From contig NZ_DRFV01000007.1 of assembly GCF_011050365.1 (NCBI RefSeq), forward strand, positions 116,001 through 180,000: a stretch of DNA of 64,000 nucleotides. The letters are read 5' to 3'. The notes under the pieces were generated by a model. It ran no database searches, was not told where the DNA came from, and saw only the letters and a list, made by a program, of their open reading frames with translations. This DNA is from Pseudohongiella sp. Lineage in GTDB: Bacteria > Pseudomonadota > Gammaproteobacteria > Pseudomonadales > Pseudohongiellaceae. The position numbers were made by a program, and so were the translations under genes. Shown piece by piece: positions 52,960 to 62,758 of this stretch (the first letter of the stretch is position 1; each line of letters opens with the position of its first letter).

Positions 52960-53035
<76 letters not shown>

Positions 53036-54858: not shown

Positions 54859-54925
54859 GTCCTTTTCTCCTGCGGTGCCGGGAGTAGTGATGCGTTTGAA
54901 TTTGAATGGTAAAGGTGACGCGATA

Positions 54926-55750
54926 ATGTCTGAGATACCGCTGGGCAAACAAACTGCGTACCCGACTGCCTATGATCCGGGATTGTTATTTCCGGTGCCC
55001 CGGGCCGCCAATCGCAGTAACATCGGCATTGCCGAGGGTGCTGCGCTGCCGTTTGCCGGTTTTGATCACTGGCGGGCATATGAGCTGTCGTGGCTGTCGC
55101 CAACCGGGCAGCCGGTAGTCGCACTGGCAGATATTCTGGTGCCGTGTGATTCGCCCTGTCTGATTGAATCCAAGTCAATGAAGCTGTATTTCAATTCTCT
55201 GAATCAGCATGTCTTCACGGATGCGGAATCGGCGCGCCAGAGGATCGGGCAGGACCTTGCCGAAGTGGCCGGTGCTGCCGTGCAGGTCACTTTGTATACC
55301 AGCGAAGCACAGGCCGTGCATACGGTCGATATGGCTGACGCTGTCCTGCTTGACGAGCTGACGGTGACGACGTCTGTTTACCAGCCCTCGCCACAACTGC
55401 TGACCTGTCACTCAGGCACTGATGTCAATGAGATACTTTACAGCCACCTGTTTCGCTCCAACTGCCCGATAACCGCGCAGCCGGATTGGGGCAGCATCGT
55501 GATCAGTTATCAGGGGGAGCAGATAGATCACAGGAGTCTGTTGTCTTATCTGATATCTTATCGTTTGCATGAAGGTTTTCACGAGCATTGCGTGGAACAG
55601 ATATTTCAGGATCTGTCGGTACAGTGCCGACCCCGGAAGCTGCAGGTCAGTATCAATTTCCTGCGTCGCGGAGGGCTGGAGATTAATCCGTTGCGCTGCA
55701 GTAGCGGCGCCATTGTCGCGTATCCGCTGCCAAGATTGCTGCGTCAGTGA
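54926..55750 (+). CDS. queF: NADPH-dependent 7-cyano-7-deazaguanine reductase
   Basis: 274 residues from ATG 54926 (AAAGGTG upstream). Long-form QueF with two T-fold halves. PCLIESKSMKLYFNSLNQ bears the QueF motif E-S-K-S-x-K-L-Y-F-N-S that binds NADPH. The C-terminal half contains the catalytic Cys in FRSNCPITAQPDWGSIVIS and the ensuing HEGFHEHCVEQIF. It reduces preQ0 to preQ1 in queuosine synthesis. Ends 30 bp before the tRNA-Ser repeat array. Confidence 0.95.
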   Translation: MSEIPLGKQTAYPTAYDPGLLFPVPRAANRSNIGIAEGAALPFAGFDHWRAYELSWLSPTGQPVVALADILVPCDSPCLIESKSMKLYFNSLNQHVFTDAESARQRIGQDLAEVAGAAVQVTLYTSEAQAVHTVDMADAVLLDELTVTTSVYQPSPQLLTCHSGTDVNEILYSHLFRSNCPITAQPDWGSIVISYQGEQIDHRSLLSYLISYRLHEGFHEHCVEQIFQDLSVQCRPRKLQVSINFLRRGGLEINPLRCSSGAIVAYPLPRLLRQ

Positions 55751-55780
55751 GGGGCTGCTTTGGCGTTAGCTGGATTATGT

Positions 55781-56047
55781 AATGGCGGTGAGGGAGGGAT
55801 TAATCAAAACAGCTTAGGGCTGTTTTGACACTGCGGGCTTCGCGCTGTCGCGCTCGTTGCAAGTTGCTGTGCAACTAGTAATCCGAAACAGCTTGGGCTG
55901 TTTCAGACCCTGCGGGCTTCGCGCTAGCGCGCTCGTTGCAAGTTGCTGCGCAACTTGTCGACCCTGTGTCGGGTTCGTCTCCCTCCCGGGTTGGCTGAAG
56001 TAAACTTTTCGAGGAAGGGGAGCCGCTTTGCTGCAGATGACTCTTTT
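55781..56047 (-). repeat. tRNA-Ser 3'-end repeat unit 3 (distal, 267 bp)
   Basis: Starts with the 19 nt complementary to the tRNA-Ser 3' end. It is longer than its neighbours because a segment of about 79 bp, from the AAAACAGC hairpin to the CAAGTTGC hairpin, is present twice (copies from about 55806 and 55886) with small differences. The rest matches the 189-bp units. Confidence 0.95.
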
Positions 56048-56236
56048 AATGGCGGTGAGGGAGGGATTAATCAAAACAGCTTAGGGCTGTTTTGACCCTG
56101 CGGGCTTCGCGCTGTCGCGCTCGTTGCAAGTTGCTGCGCAACTTGTCGAACCCTGTGTCGGGTTCGTCTCCCTCCCGGGTTGGCTGAAGTAAACTTTTCG
56201 AGGAAGGGGGGCCGCTTTGCTGCAGGTAACTCTTTT
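56048..56236 (-). repeat. tRNA-Ser 3'-end repeat unit 2 (189 bp)
   Basis: Almost identical to unit 1; the differences I noted are a GTC for GCT-type change in the GC-rich stem, an extra A in the GACC/GAACC stem and one base in the CCCGGG run. Same 19-nt tRNA tail and same hairpins. Confidence 0.97.
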
Positions 56237-56425
56237 AATGGCGGTGAGGGAGGGATTAATCAAAACAGCTTAGGGCTGTTTTGACCCTGCGGGCTTCGCG
56301 CTGCTGCGCTCGTTGCAAGTTGCTGCGCAACTTGTCGACCCTGTGTCGGGTTCGTCTCCCTCCCCGGGTTGGCTGAAGTAAACTTTTCGAGGAAGGGGGG
56401 CCGCTTTGCTGCAGGTAACTCTTTT
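56237..56425 (-). repeat. tRNA-Ser 3'-end repeat unit 1 (189 bp)
   Basis: Ends, in the tRNA sense, with a copy of the last 19 nt of the tRNA (including CCA). Internal stems include AAAACAGC/GCTGTTTT (56262-56282) and CAAGTTGC/GCAACTTG (56316-56334). The stem with its T4 end on the minus strand could act as a weak terminator or processing site. Confidence 0.97.
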
Positions 56426-56427
56426 AA

Positions 56428-56515
56428 TGGCGGTGAGGGAGGGATTCGAACCCTCGATACGTTTCCGTATACACACTTTCCAGGCGTGCTCCTTCAGCCA
56501 CTCGGACACCTCACC
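56428..56515 (-). tRNA. tRNA-Ser (anticodon GGA)
   Basis: 88 nt with encoded CCA. Acceptor stem GGTGAGG/CCTCACC, long variable arm (TATACG...CGTATC) typical of serine tRNAs, anticodon stem CACGC/GTGTG around the loop CTGGAAA (anticodon GGA), and T-arm with GGTTCGAATCC. Its 3' end is duplicated three times downstream. Confidence 0.97.
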
Positions 56516-56532
56516 GTTTCAAGGCGCGTAAC

Positions 56533-56538
56533 TGTATA
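56533..56538 (-). promoter_or_regulatory. candidate -10 box of tRNA-Ser
   Basis: TATACA on the minus strand about 18 bp before the tRNA 5' end, followed by a G+C-rich discriminator (GTTACGCGCC). A TTGTAT element lies upstream at a short spacing of 15 bp. Confidence 0.5.
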
Positions 56539-56674
56539 TCAGGGCAGTGGCAAATACAAGCAGATAAGTATTGCCGCGCCAAATTGACCGGCGCCCGATC
56601 GCTACCCTGTATAGCTTGACGCGGCACAAGATCTGCTGTGACTATGTCGCCAACGCAGACAGGAACGTTCCGCC

Positions 56675-58579
56675 ATGGCCAGGCTCCGACGACCAAAATC
56701 AAAGTCACTGATGCGCAGTGTGCTTCTGCGCATTGTGCTGGCAGCCTCCCTCGTGGTTGGTGCCCTGACCATGATGGCGTACACCTTTATCTACGCCGGA
56801 ACCCAAACCCGCATGCTGGATAACCTCAGTGACTGGGTCGTGGAACGGGCGCGCAACGACAGTGTCATCTTCGAACTGGCGAAAGAGAACATGACACGCT
56901 TCAGTGACGAATTTCTGCGACTCTATACCTCCGACATTGCAGTCGATGAAGATGTTTTCTGGTCGTATTACGAGACCGATCAGGACAATGCTGTCCGCAT
57001 GCGTCGTGAATATTATGATGGAGTGTATGCTGACGACGGGCTTTATTATGAGGGGCTGACCAGTTTTGTCGGCAACAACCAGTCGATTGATGATCCTGAC
57101 CTGCAGCGCCGCCTGGTATTGTCCGTGCGGTTGTTGGCTCAACTTGGTCCGGCATGGATTAGCCGTTTCCAGAATGTGCACGTGAGTTTTCCCGAAAATG
57201 CCATCGCGTTGTACGCACCGGGCACACCCTGGGGGTTGGAGGCGGCGCCTGACCTGCCCATGAACGAACTGGGTGTCGTCCGTTCCATGCAACAGTCTGA
57301 GAACCCGGACCGTGATCCGGGCTGGAGCGGGCTGTATTACGATGAGACGGCAGAAGAATGGGCGCTGACCTATCAGGTACCGCTGGATCTTGATGGCAGG
57401 CACCTGATCAACCCCAGTCATGATGTCTCACTGACAGCGATCATGGACAAGCTGGTCAGGGACACGCCGGACGGGGGTTATAATCTGATCTTCCGCAGTG
57501 ACGGATACCTGATTGCCCATCCGGCAGAACCGGCCTCGGACCGGCGCTGGGTAGGGCAGTTGTCCCCGGAAAACATTGACGATCCCGCCATAGTCCGCAT
57601 GTACGAACTGATTGATGCGGCCACGGATGGCAATCCGGGCACTGTGTCGTTAGTGCAAAACTCCGTGGGCGGAACCTGGCTTGCGGTCAGCGAGCTGAGT
57701 GGGCCGGACTGGTGGTTTGTTTCCGTGTATCCGGAATCGATGATTCGCGCGTCAGCCAATCAGGCGGCGGTGGCGGTCCTGGTGACCGGGATTGTGCTGC
57801 TGTTGTTATTGATCTTCATCATCGGCTTTATCATCCGCCGGGATGCGGAGCGGCCGCTTGAACAGCTCCGCGAGGCAGCGCGGTGTATTGGCCGCGGTGA
57901 CTATGCTGCCGTGGCCGATGGGCGGGTAAAATTGCCTCGCGAGCTGCGAAACGAAGTGGGGCTGTTGGCCAACACGTTCCATGACATGGCTGAAAGTATT
58001 CGCGATGCGCAGGCGACTCTAGAGCTGATAGTAGCGGAGCGTACCCGGGAGCTGCAGGCGGCCAATAGTGATTTGCGTGAACTCAGCCTGCTTGATGGCC
58101 TGCTGGGTATCCACAACCGGCGAGCCTTTGACCGTGACCTGGCGCGCGTGTGCAGGGAAGCCGGAACCGGCCATGGTGAGTTTCATCTGATGTTGATTGA
58201 TGTCGACCATTTCAAGTTGTTTAATGACAGTTACGGGCATACCCAGGGTGACCAGGTTCTGCGGCAGATAGCAAAAACCATCAGTGACGCTATCCGCACT
58301 GAGGACAGAGTTTATCGATACGGCGGTGAGGAGTTGGCGGTGCTGTTTAATCGCGGCGATTCCGAGTCTGCTGACAGCGCCGCCGAGCGTATCATGGCCG
58401 CTGTGCGGGAGCTGGCGATTGCTTTTCCCGAGTCAGCACACGGCATTGTTACAGTCAGTGCCGGTCTGATGCACGGTCATGCTAAGCATGACCGTGTCGA
58501 CGATGTCATCGCCGAAGCTGACAGTCGGCTATATGCGTCGAAGCGAAAGGGCCGCAACTGTCTGACCACGAGTAGCTGA
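56675..58579 (+). CDS. membrane diguanylate cyclase with periplasmic sensor and HAMP
   Basis: 634 residues. TM1 about 15-38, a large periplasmic sensor region about 40-355 (probably dCache), TM2 about 361-388, HAMP linker, a short coiled coil, and GGDEF domain about 465-634. The active-site motif is GGEEL (about 549-553) preceded by the I-site RxxD (RTED) at the correct five-residue spacing, so the enzyme should make cyclic di-GMP and be product-inhibited. It has no EAL domain. No neighbour reveals its ligand. Confidence 0.92.
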   Translation: MARLRRPKSKSLMRSVLLRIVLAASLVVGALTMMAYTFIYAGTQTRMLDNLSDWVVERARNDSVIFELAKENMTRFSDEFLRLYTSDIAVDEDVFWSYYETDQDNAVRMRREYYDGVYADDGLYYEGLTSFVGNNQSIDDPDLQRRLVLSVRLLAQLGPAWISRFQNVHVSFPENAIALYAPGTPWGLEAAPDLPMNELGVVRSMQQSENPDRDPGWSGLYYDETAEEWALTYQVPLDLDGRHLINPSHDVSLTAIMDKLVRDTPDGGYNLIFRSDGYLIAHPAEPASDRRWVGQLSPENIDDPAIVRMYELIDAATDGNPGTVSLVQNSVGGTWLAVSELSGPDWWFVSVYPESMIRASANQAAVAVLVTGIVLLLLLIFIIGFIIRRDAERPLEQLREAARCIGRGDYAAVADGRVKLPRELRNEVGLLANTFHDMAESIRDAQATLELIVAERTRELQAANSDLRELSLLDGLLGIHNRRAFDRDLARVCREAGTGHGEFHLMLIDVDHFKLFNDSYGHTQGDQVLRQIAKTISDAIRTEDRVYRYGGEELAVLFNRGDSESADSAAERIMAAVRELAIAFPESAHGIVTVSAGLMHGHAKHDRVDDVIAEADSRLYASKRKGRNCLTTSS

Positions 58580-62644: not shown

Positions 62645-62758
<114 letters not shown>

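What the first reader, a model, noticed from the sequence alone, without database searches (positions are those of the whole stretch)
55781..56515. tRNA-Ser followed by tandem repeats each carrying 19 nt of the tRNA 3' end (rtT-like array)
Downstream of tRNA-Ser(GGA), three units (189, 189 and 267 bp) each end in an exact copy of the last 19 nt of the tRNA, CCA included. The E. coli tyrT operon has the same plan: 178-bp repeats with 19 nt of the tRNA-Tyr 3' end, giving the small rtT RNA. Finding it on a serine tRNA with a different repeat sequence suggests independent origin or a wider class. Processing at each pseudo-3' end could release several small RNAs; the copies could also be attachment-site-like targets or decoys for RNase P/CCA enzymes.
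Basis: partly seen in the sequence, partly recalled or inferred. Interest (0 to 1): 0.75.

Follow-up and report, generated by a model that had tools for sequence, protein, structure and literature searches.

The report
tRNA-tailored repeat array behind tRNA-Ser
Behind a serine tRNA gene lie three repeats that each end in an exact copy of the tRNA's last 19 bases and carry an inverted stretch matched to that same tRNA; they are kin of E. coli's rtT repeats, a class found behind many tRNA genes, whose hairpins likely fold in single-stranded DNA and which may therefore be small gene-less insertions rather than only sources of small RNAs.

Summary
In detail: tRNA-Ser(GGA), 56515-56428 (minus strand), is followed by units of 189, 189 and 267 bp, each ending in an exact 19-nt copy of the tRNA 3' end. 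Units 1 and 2 align full-length to Rfam RtT (RF00391, the E. coli tyrT family) at 21.3 and 28.6 bits, below its cut-off of 45: a divergent relative, not an independent invention. Relatives sit behind 115 tRNA genes (Ser, Gln, Tyr, Arg, Phe, Glu) in the loci I read. New points: (1) each unit holds an inverted arm matched to its own tRNA, and arm and tRNA change together; (2) hairpins covary strongly yet with few G-U pairs (1.2% of cells against 10.6% in RNase P RNA); (3) the commonest loop is C(GNA)G, a stable DNA loop, 270 on the tRNA-sense strand against 1 on the other; (4) E. coli strains carry 0, 1 or 2 exact 175-bp units between tyrT and tyrV, and the flank of the empty allele does not resemble the unit. 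I read the units as gene-less insertions at the tRNA T-loop, kept as folded single-stranded DNA. A mobilising recombinase is inferred, not found. An RNA role remains a serious rival.

The parts
56428..56515 (-). tRNA-Ser(GGA), host gene
   Evidence: ARAGORN; Rfam tRNA 54.1 bits
56428..56446 (-). the tRNA's own last 19 nt (T-loop to CCA), the block copied in each unit
56239..56427 (-). unit 1 (189 bp): spacer, inverted arm, hairpin module, 19-nt tail
   Evidence: R1 model 134.7 bits (R1 was built with this unit); RF00391 21.3 bits at 56239-56378
56050..56238 (-). unit 2 (189 bp)
   Evidence: R1 model 139.8 bits (R1 was built with this unit); RF00391 28.6 bits, E 0.0028, 1-130/130 at 56050-56190
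55783..56049 (-). unit 3 (267 bp), hairpin module doubled
   Evidence: two overlapping R1 hits of 77.8 and 76.8 bits
56348..56364 (-). inverted arm of unit 1, near-complement of the tRNA T-arm (15 of 17)
56160..56176 (-). inverted arm of unit 2 (15 of 17)
55971..55987 (-). inverted arm of unit 3 (15 of 17)
56258..56334 (-). hairpin module of unit 1, at the T-loop split GGGTCGA | AATCCC
56069..56145 (-). hairpin module of unit 2; hairpins A and D have C(GCA)G loops
   Evidence: loops read from the sequence
55802..55957 (-). doubled hairpin module of unit 3
56239..56257 (-). exact 19-nt tRNA tail copy 1
56050..56068 (-). exact 19-nt tRNA tail copy 2
55783..55801 (-). exact 19-nt tRNA tail copy 3

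Best explanation
The array is a divergent relative of the RtT repeats of E. coli tyrT, and its units likely are gene-less insertions at the tRNA T-loop whose hairpins are kept in shape as folded single-stranded DNA. Shown: each unit repeats the host tRNA from the T-loop to the CCA, carries an inverted arm matched to that tRNA, and has its hairpin module placed exactly where the T-loop would be (GGGTTCGA | AATCCC); in E. coli whole units are present or absent exactly at the 19-nt block. Inferred: when the tRNA-sense strand is single-stranded, the arm pairs with the two split halves and re-creates a double-stranded T-arm, the place where tRNA-targeting integrases cross over, with the hairpins bulged out. 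A recombinase supplied in trans would then add, remove or move units, slippage between the 19-nt tails would change copy number, and the arm would be re-copied from, or selected to match, each new tRNA. The rtT-type transcripts would be by-products, or uses found later.
For: Tailoring: arm against own tRNA 8-mer, mean 5.61 Watson-Crick pairs of 8, shuffled 4.25, 0 of 10000 shuffles as high, over 79 distinct pairs. At tRNA-Ser(TGA) of the genus, T-stem strand TCCCTGCC goes with arm GGCAGGGA, TCTCTCTC with GAGAGAGA, TCTCTCCC with GGGAGAGA. Structure: 35 genus units, 96.5% of cells paired, 206 both-side changes against 57 in shuffles, 0 of 500 on four of five measures and 15 of 500 on the fifth. 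DNA rather than RNA: with RNAalifold structures for both, G-U makes 1.2% of cells and both:one-side changes are 19.4, against 10.6% and 2.15 for RNase P RNA of 30 genomes of the same family. Loops: 270 C(GNA)G hairpins in 158 sense units, 1 antisense, 0 in 30 RNase P RNAs; d(GNA) with a CG closing pair is a described stable DNA triloop (PMC5815330, passages). Precise units: between tyrT and tyrV, five fetched strains are empty, K-12 has one 175-bp unit, 15.03CC two; DNA covering at least 80% of the first 139 bp of this unit is in 1919 of 5426 E. coli genomes. Its spacer does not resemble the empty flank (identity 0.51; shuffled mean 0.48, maximum 0.59), so it is not a copy of the local sequence. 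Module swap: in G010 two units behind one tRNA share spacer and arm (0.89) but not module (0.58); the second module is nearest to one at another tRNA in G014 (0.84). Integrase genes lie next to tRNA-Ser(GGA) in G003 and G013, with the array found elsewhere without a tRNA.
Against: No recombinase for the units, circle or movement was seen, and the units encode no protein of note. RtT RNAs are transcribed in E. coli (recalled; annotated as ncRNA rttR) and gave Northern signals in A. pleuropneumoniae (PMC4986893, passages). At Tyr loci 0 of 11 have a terminator before the unit, and in several RtT lies between co-directional tRNA genes. The sense strand folds better with RNA energies too (z -4.28 against -3.16), and with DNA energies RNase P RNA also folds better in sense, so energy does not separate RNA from DNA. 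RtT units also hold 61 GNRA-type tetraloop hairpins. The few interrupted stems at GNA loops in the genus are G-U in 4 of 6. The G-U control is a single RNA family, and the structure counted was drawn from a window unit. In a second set of units the arm matches the 5' T-stem and variable region instead; only 31 of 79 arms have their own tRNA as unique best, 8 more tied. Where the tail copy differs from the tRNA the arm fits the tRNA better in 22 of 39 units, the unit's own end in 3, tied in 14, so in those units the folded duplex is imperfect. Module identity is only slightly higher within one tRNA than between tRNAs (0.73 against 0.69-0.70), so movement between tRNAs is not proved.
Confidence: 0.4

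Rival explanations
1. The units make small RNAs, as proposed for rtT: read-through from the tRNA is cut at each tRNA-like tail, and the structured RNAs act in trans (for example in the stringent response). The hairpins are kept as RNA.
For: The window spacer has no terminator-like hairpin; the scan of 55700-56700 found only two weak ones, inside hairpin C, at about the shuffled expectation of 1.4, so read-through is possible. The sense strand folds better than the antisense in 132 of 158 units. RtT RNAs were detected in A. pleuropneumoniae and RtT was reported up-regulated in the cold in Thioalkalivibrio. GCT arrays of the genus seem to lie between the tRNA and its terminator (read by eye).
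Against: Few G-U pairs; C(GNA)G rather than GNRA is the main loop (270 against 61); terminator before the unit in 49 of 114 loci, 8 of 8 Phe and 9 of 9 Arg; tail not intact in 66 of 141 units.
Confidence: 0.3
2. A passive by-product: tandem copies grow and shrink by slippage between the 19-nt tails, and template switching during replication keeps copying one arm of each palindrome from the other. No function and no mobiliser is needed.
For: Copy number varies between species and E. coli strains. L082 shows a 36-bp tandem of the bare tail. Templated correction would explain Watson-Crick pairs with few G-U.
Against: Would not explain the one-strand C(GNA)G loops (270 against 1), the centre of the arm that stays non-complementary, the spread over many tRNA genes and genera, or a unit unlike the empty flank.
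Confidence: 0.2
3. A local expression device: the arm pairs with the extra tail (or with the tRNA) in the transcript, so that surplus tRNA-like ends do not disturb tRNA folding, processing or termination.
For: Outer stem pairs in 95.7% of cells with 5 of 8 pairs changed on both sides; arms track the tRNA. rtT-like elements assigned to BIMEs were proposed as attenuators (PMC2965389, passages).
Against: The need would not arise where a terminator precedes the unit; where the tail copy differs from the tRNA the arm fits the tRNA better (22 of 39, 3 the other way), which speaks against pairing with the surplus tail; does not explain the DNA-type loops.
Confidence: 0.1

Closest known systems
RtT RNA, Rfam RF00391 (E. 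coli tyrT/tyrV repeats, rttR)
   Same: Position behind a tRNA, tandem units of similar size (175-178 bp in E. coli, 189 here), exact 19-nt tRNA tails, inverted arm, order of hairpins; full-length model match
   Different: tRNA-Ser host instead of Tyr, own hairpin sequences and lengths, score below the Rfam cut-off (28.6 and 21.3 against 45), doubled module in unit 3
Integrative elements of tyrosine recombinases in tRNA genes (T-loop att sites; example in PMC2647930, passages)
   Same: Identity block from T-loop to CCA; direct repeats flank the insert; integrases at tRNA-Ser(GGA) in G003 and G013
   Different: Units are about 0.2 kb, carry no integrase, and hold an inverted tRNA-matched arm
Integron attC sites (PMC2727003, start of abstract in a search listing)
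   Same: Would work alike: one strand folds into a hairpin that re-creates a double-stranded recombination core with bulged parts; structure kept more than sequence
   Different: No integron integrase or cassette genes tied to it; core resembles a tRNA T-arm; recombination not shown
REP/BIME palindromes
   Same: Extragenic palindromes; rtT-like similarity noted in PMC2965389 (passages); rttR listed as REP-bearing in PMC12306157 (passages)
   Different: Much longer, several hairpins per unit, bound to tRNA 3' ends (150 of 170 hits)

Membership tests
RtT (RF00391) | score at or above the Rfam gathering cut-off (45 bits) | tested here: not met
   28.6 and 21.3 bits; cut-off met by G029 and G024 behind tRNA-Ser(GGA)
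RtT (RF00391) | alignment over the whole model with the same hairpin order | tested here: met
   1-130/130 for units 1 and 2
RtT (RF00391) | tandem units with the 19-nt tRNA 3' end | tested here: met
RtT (RF00391) | processed transcript | not testable with these tools
   no expression data
tRNA-targeting integrative element | direct repeats equal to the tRNA 3' end | tested here: met
tRNA-targeting integrative element | own integrase gene | tested here: not met
   units of 189-267 bp; the ORFs of 60 aa or more that touch the array are mechanical, at most 86 aa
tRNA-targeting integrative element | circular excised form | not testable with these tools
   needs PCR or reads
integron attC | strand-specific folded DNA hairpin | tested here: inconclusive
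   DNA-type loops on one strand; folding in DNA not observed
integron attC | R/L boxes and recombination by IntI | not tested
   -
REP/BIME | short single palindromes scattered between genes | tested here: not met
   units of about 190 bp tied to tRNA genes

The most novel reading that the evidence does not exclude
RtT units, this array included, are a new kind of recombination site: gene-less cassettes that fold as single-stranded DNA, rebuild the T-arm of whichever tRNA they sit behind, and are moved in trans by tRNA-targeting recombinases, an attC-like system that adapts its core to its host tRNA. The 'rtT RNA' would then be a misnamed DNA element.
Probability: 0.18. Interest if true: 0.88.

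Novelty: new variant of a known kind. Interest (0 to 1): 0.64.

Why it matters
rtT RNA has been listed as a small RNA of unclear function since 1991 (recalled; the paper is not held). The comparison here shows that it belongs to a class behind at least six kinds of tRNA, that units are matched to their own tRNA, and that its hairpins evolve more like DNA than RNA. If so, a group annotated in E. coli genomes as 'RtT sRNA' is at least partly a DNA element, and how tiny gene-less sequences reach and fit the ends of tRNA genes becomes testable in E. coli, where strains with 0, 1 and 2 units at one site already exist.

Tried and rejected
Independent origin: rejected after the RF00391 match and the bridging hits. 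Chance or assembly artefact: rejected. Orphan arrays as free transposition: L051 and L053 look like arrays pushed away from the tRNA by an integrase-bearing insert at the same T-loop, and L011 lies beside an AlpA-type gene. Six other hits without a tRNA (L128, L143, L182, L218, L229, L231) are not at contig ends and stay unexplained. Clustering of modules by tRNA or by genome gave no clear signal. A precise empty site within the genus could not be shown; E. coli gave one. Loop-by-loop counts of stem interruptions were too few to use (G-U in 4 of 6 and 0 of 5 in the genus, 8 of 29 and 1 of 9 elsewhere; RNase P 4 of 5 and 3 of 13) and do not by themselves show G-U depletion. An exact count of empty E. 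coli alleles failed because the tool joins split matches, so I give only the count of genomes that hold the tyrT-tyrV unit. Literature: all ten searches used; some searches looked for rtT/rttR papers; Bosl and Kersten 1991 is not held. No paper describing tRNA-matched arms or DNA-type loops in RtT was seen in those listings or in the passages read, which is not proof of absence. PMC7657543 (one passage) names a tandem GA motif in RtT RNA, an RNA-type reading of part of the arm.

Full report
What is there. The tRNA-Ser(GGA) gene lies on the minus strand at 56515-56428. Reading on in its direction, three units follow, 189, 189 and 267 bp, each closed by an exact copy of the tRNA's last 19 nt. 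Each unit has the same order: spacer of about 60 nt; an inverted arm GGGAGGGAGACGAACCC that would pair with the T-arm at 15 of 17 places; a short hairpin GAACCC...GGGTTCGA (GGGTCGA in units 1 and 3); a module of about 77 nt with hairpins A, B, D and C; and the tail AATCCC...CCA. The module therefore sits exactly where the T-loop would be, between GGGTTCGA and AATCCC. In unit 3 the module is doubled; the same doubling is seen in L011 in the same genome.

Same genome. A search with the unit found three more places: behind tRNA-Ser(GCT) (L009, two units of 190 bp), behind tRNA-Ser(TGA) (L010, two of 191 bp), and L011, which has no tRNA within the 5.2 kb read but carries what looks like the tail of tRNA-Phe and lies near an AlpA-type phage gene. 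The L009 and L010 arrays carry the tail of their own tRNA (in L010 with one C missing) and an arm matched to it.

Kinship to rtT. At Rfam cut-offs only the tRNA is called over the array, but at relaxed thresholds RtT (RF00391) aligns over its whole length, 28.6 bits (E 0.0028) and 21.3 bits, cut-off 45. Of 37 genomes searched, the window's own included, 14 match at E up to 1 and 2 exceed the cut-off, both behind tRNA-Ser(GGA). In E. coli the tyrT/tyrV units have the same anatomy, arm included. In the class, 76 of 370 genomes match RF00391 at E up to 0.01, 25 over the cut-off; of 14 control genomes only E. coli does. So this is one class, widely spread and diverged.

Hosts. With a covariance model of my own (R1) 14 of 15 genomes of the genus and 28 of 59 of the family have units. 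In the loci I read, 170 R1 hits were examined (178 reported or taken from the window, 8 partial rows dropped): 150 have a tRNA upstream on the same strand, on 115 tRNA genes: Ser 60, Gln 26, Tyr 11, Arg 9, Phe 8, Glu 1. Of the 20 hits without one, 12 lie at or near a contig end, 2 look displaced by an insert, and 6 are unexplained (with the contig lengths). First units start mostly 25-67 nt after the CCA. Loci were selected by RtT-type models, so these numbers describe the class, not tRNA genes at large. Exact 19/19 tails are seen in 75 of 141 units, 18 or more in 95; in several the match is kept only over the part that faces the arm.

Tailoring. Over 79 distinct arm-tRNA pairs the arm makes 5.61 Watson-Crick pairs of 8 with its own tRNA, 4.25 when tRNAs are shuffled (0 of 10000). 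Own tRNA is the unique best of 30 for 31 of 79, tied for 8. The weak remainder includes a second arm type matched to the 5' T-stem and variable region. The clearest case is tRNA-Ser(TGA) within the genus, where three T-stem versions go with three arm versions (synteny of these tRNA genes was not checked). In 39 units the tail copy differs from the tRNA over the arm-facing 8 nt; there the arm fits the tRNA better in 22, the unit's own end in 3, tied in 14. The arm therefore seems to follow the tRNA, not merely the copy beside it.

RNA or DNA. On 35 genus units the structure is supported by strong covariation: 96.5% of cells paired, 24 of 39 pairs changed on both sides, 206 such cells against 57 in shuffles, 0 of 500 on four of five measures (15 of 500 on the fifth), and sliding the partners destroys it (the structure was drawn from a window unit, and related sequences can exceed shuffles). 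Yet G-U pairs make only 1.2% of cells, and changes on both sides outnumber one-sided ones 15.9 to 1 (19.4 with the RNAalifold structure, 32 in hairpins A and C, 5.8 in the outer stem). RNase P RNA of 30 genomes of the same family, with its RNAalifold structure, gives 10.6% and 2.15 to 1. Loops agree: 270 C(GNA)G triloop hairpins in 158 distinct units on the tRNA-sense strand, 1 on the other strand, 0.10 per 130 nt in upstream flanks, none in RNase P RNA, which has 80 GNRA-type loops; RtT units have 61 of those. d(GNA) with a C-G closing pair is a described stable DNA hairpin motif with GNRA as its RNA counterpart (PMC5815330, passages). The loops are one-sided, so a double-stranded palindrome read by a protein would not explain them; single-stranded DNA of the sense strand would. 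Counter-evidence: sense folding is also better with RNA energies (132 of 158); DNA energies favour the sense strand too (131 of 158) but do so for RNase P as well; and the few interrupted GNA stems in the genus are G-U in 4 of 6. The control rests on one RNA family.

Transcription. The window spacer has no terminator-like hairpin; in all, 49 of 114 first units lie behind one, all 8 Phe and 9 Arg loci among them, none of 11 Tyr loci, several of which are in tRNA clusters. The scan of the window region found no sigma-70-type promoter and only two weak terminator-like sites. Transcription with the tRNA is therefore possible in many loci but not a shared feature.

Gain and loss. In the genus, of 14 tRNA-Ser(GGA) loci read, G000, G007, G008, G010 and G014 have units (G008 partly masked), G012 a partial one, G003 and G013 have an integrase gene directly behind the tRNA with the array elsewhere, and G001, G002, G004, G005, G009 and G011 have none. 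In E. coli the region between tyrT and tyrV is empty in five of the eight strains read (E16, CFIAFB20180540, 2c3, ECOR29, 131), holds one exact 175-bp unit in K-12 and two in 15.03CC; the eighth, EC958, has a single tRNA-Tyr. Units behind tyrV range from 0 to 3; in the two strains with none (EC958, 131) other genes follow at once. DNA covering at least 80% of the first 139 bp of the tyrT-tyrV unit is in 1919 of 5426 genomes. Its spacer is no more like the empty flank than shuffled sequence, so it was brought in, or is an old unit cleanly lost elsewhere; polarity is open. In G010 two neighbouring units share spacer and arm but carry different modules, the second nearest to a module behind another tRNA in G014.

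Conclusion. Firm: a tRNA-tailored repeat class related to rtT, present as whole units at the tRNA T-loop-to-CCA block. Likely: its hairpins are kept as single-stranded DNA. Inferred: folding re-creates a T-arm duplex on which a tRNA-targeting recombinase could act, attC-like. An RNA function, alone or in addition, is not excluded and has published expression data behind it (PMC4986893 and PMC8092127, passages).

Noticed in passing
window 54875-56675: Relative to G007, G008 and G010, the tRNA with its array points towards queF instead of away from it; G012 and G003 seem to show the window's arrangement (read by eye). The tRNA-array segment seems inverted between species.
   Followed up: no
L064 1605-2639 (G003), L076 1622-2641 (G013): Phage integrase genes (PF00589, Int_N) directly behind tRNA-Ser(GGA), with the RtT array found away from a tRNA (L051, L053).
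   Followed up: partly
L011 725-2167: AlpA-type regulator (PF05930) and an ORF weakly matching REP_ORF2-G2P (25.9 bits, cut-off 27.8) beside the Phe-type array without a tRNA: possibly a satellite or single-stranded-DNA-phage-like insert at tRNA-Phe.
   Followed up: partly
L082, behind tRNA-Ser(GCT) of G010: About four tandem copies, 36 bp apart, of the bare tail AATCCCTCTCTC with a short spacer and no module, following one full unit.
   Followed up: no
L123, L141, L142, L151, L105, L166: A second arm type that matches the 5' T-stem and variable region of the tRNA rather than the 3' T-stem.
   Followed up: partly
L128, L143, L182, L218, L229, L231: RtT-like units inside contigs without a tRNA upstream on the same strand in the stretch held.
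   Followed up: no
E. coli records H19, H15, H26 and others: RtT copy number at tyrT/tyrV differs between strains, up to five annotated RtT units; up to 14 places per genome match the tyrT-region query.
   Followed up: partly
window 56431-56471 and L009/L010: Rfam Plastid-psbl-rps4 (RF04351) matches the antisense strand of tRNA-Ser below its cut-off; likely a tRNA-Ser artefact in that family.
   Followed up: no
window 52960-53035 and 62654-62750: tRNA-Glu(TTC), where no tail copy or arm was found downstream, and the small SRP RNA.
   Followed up: no
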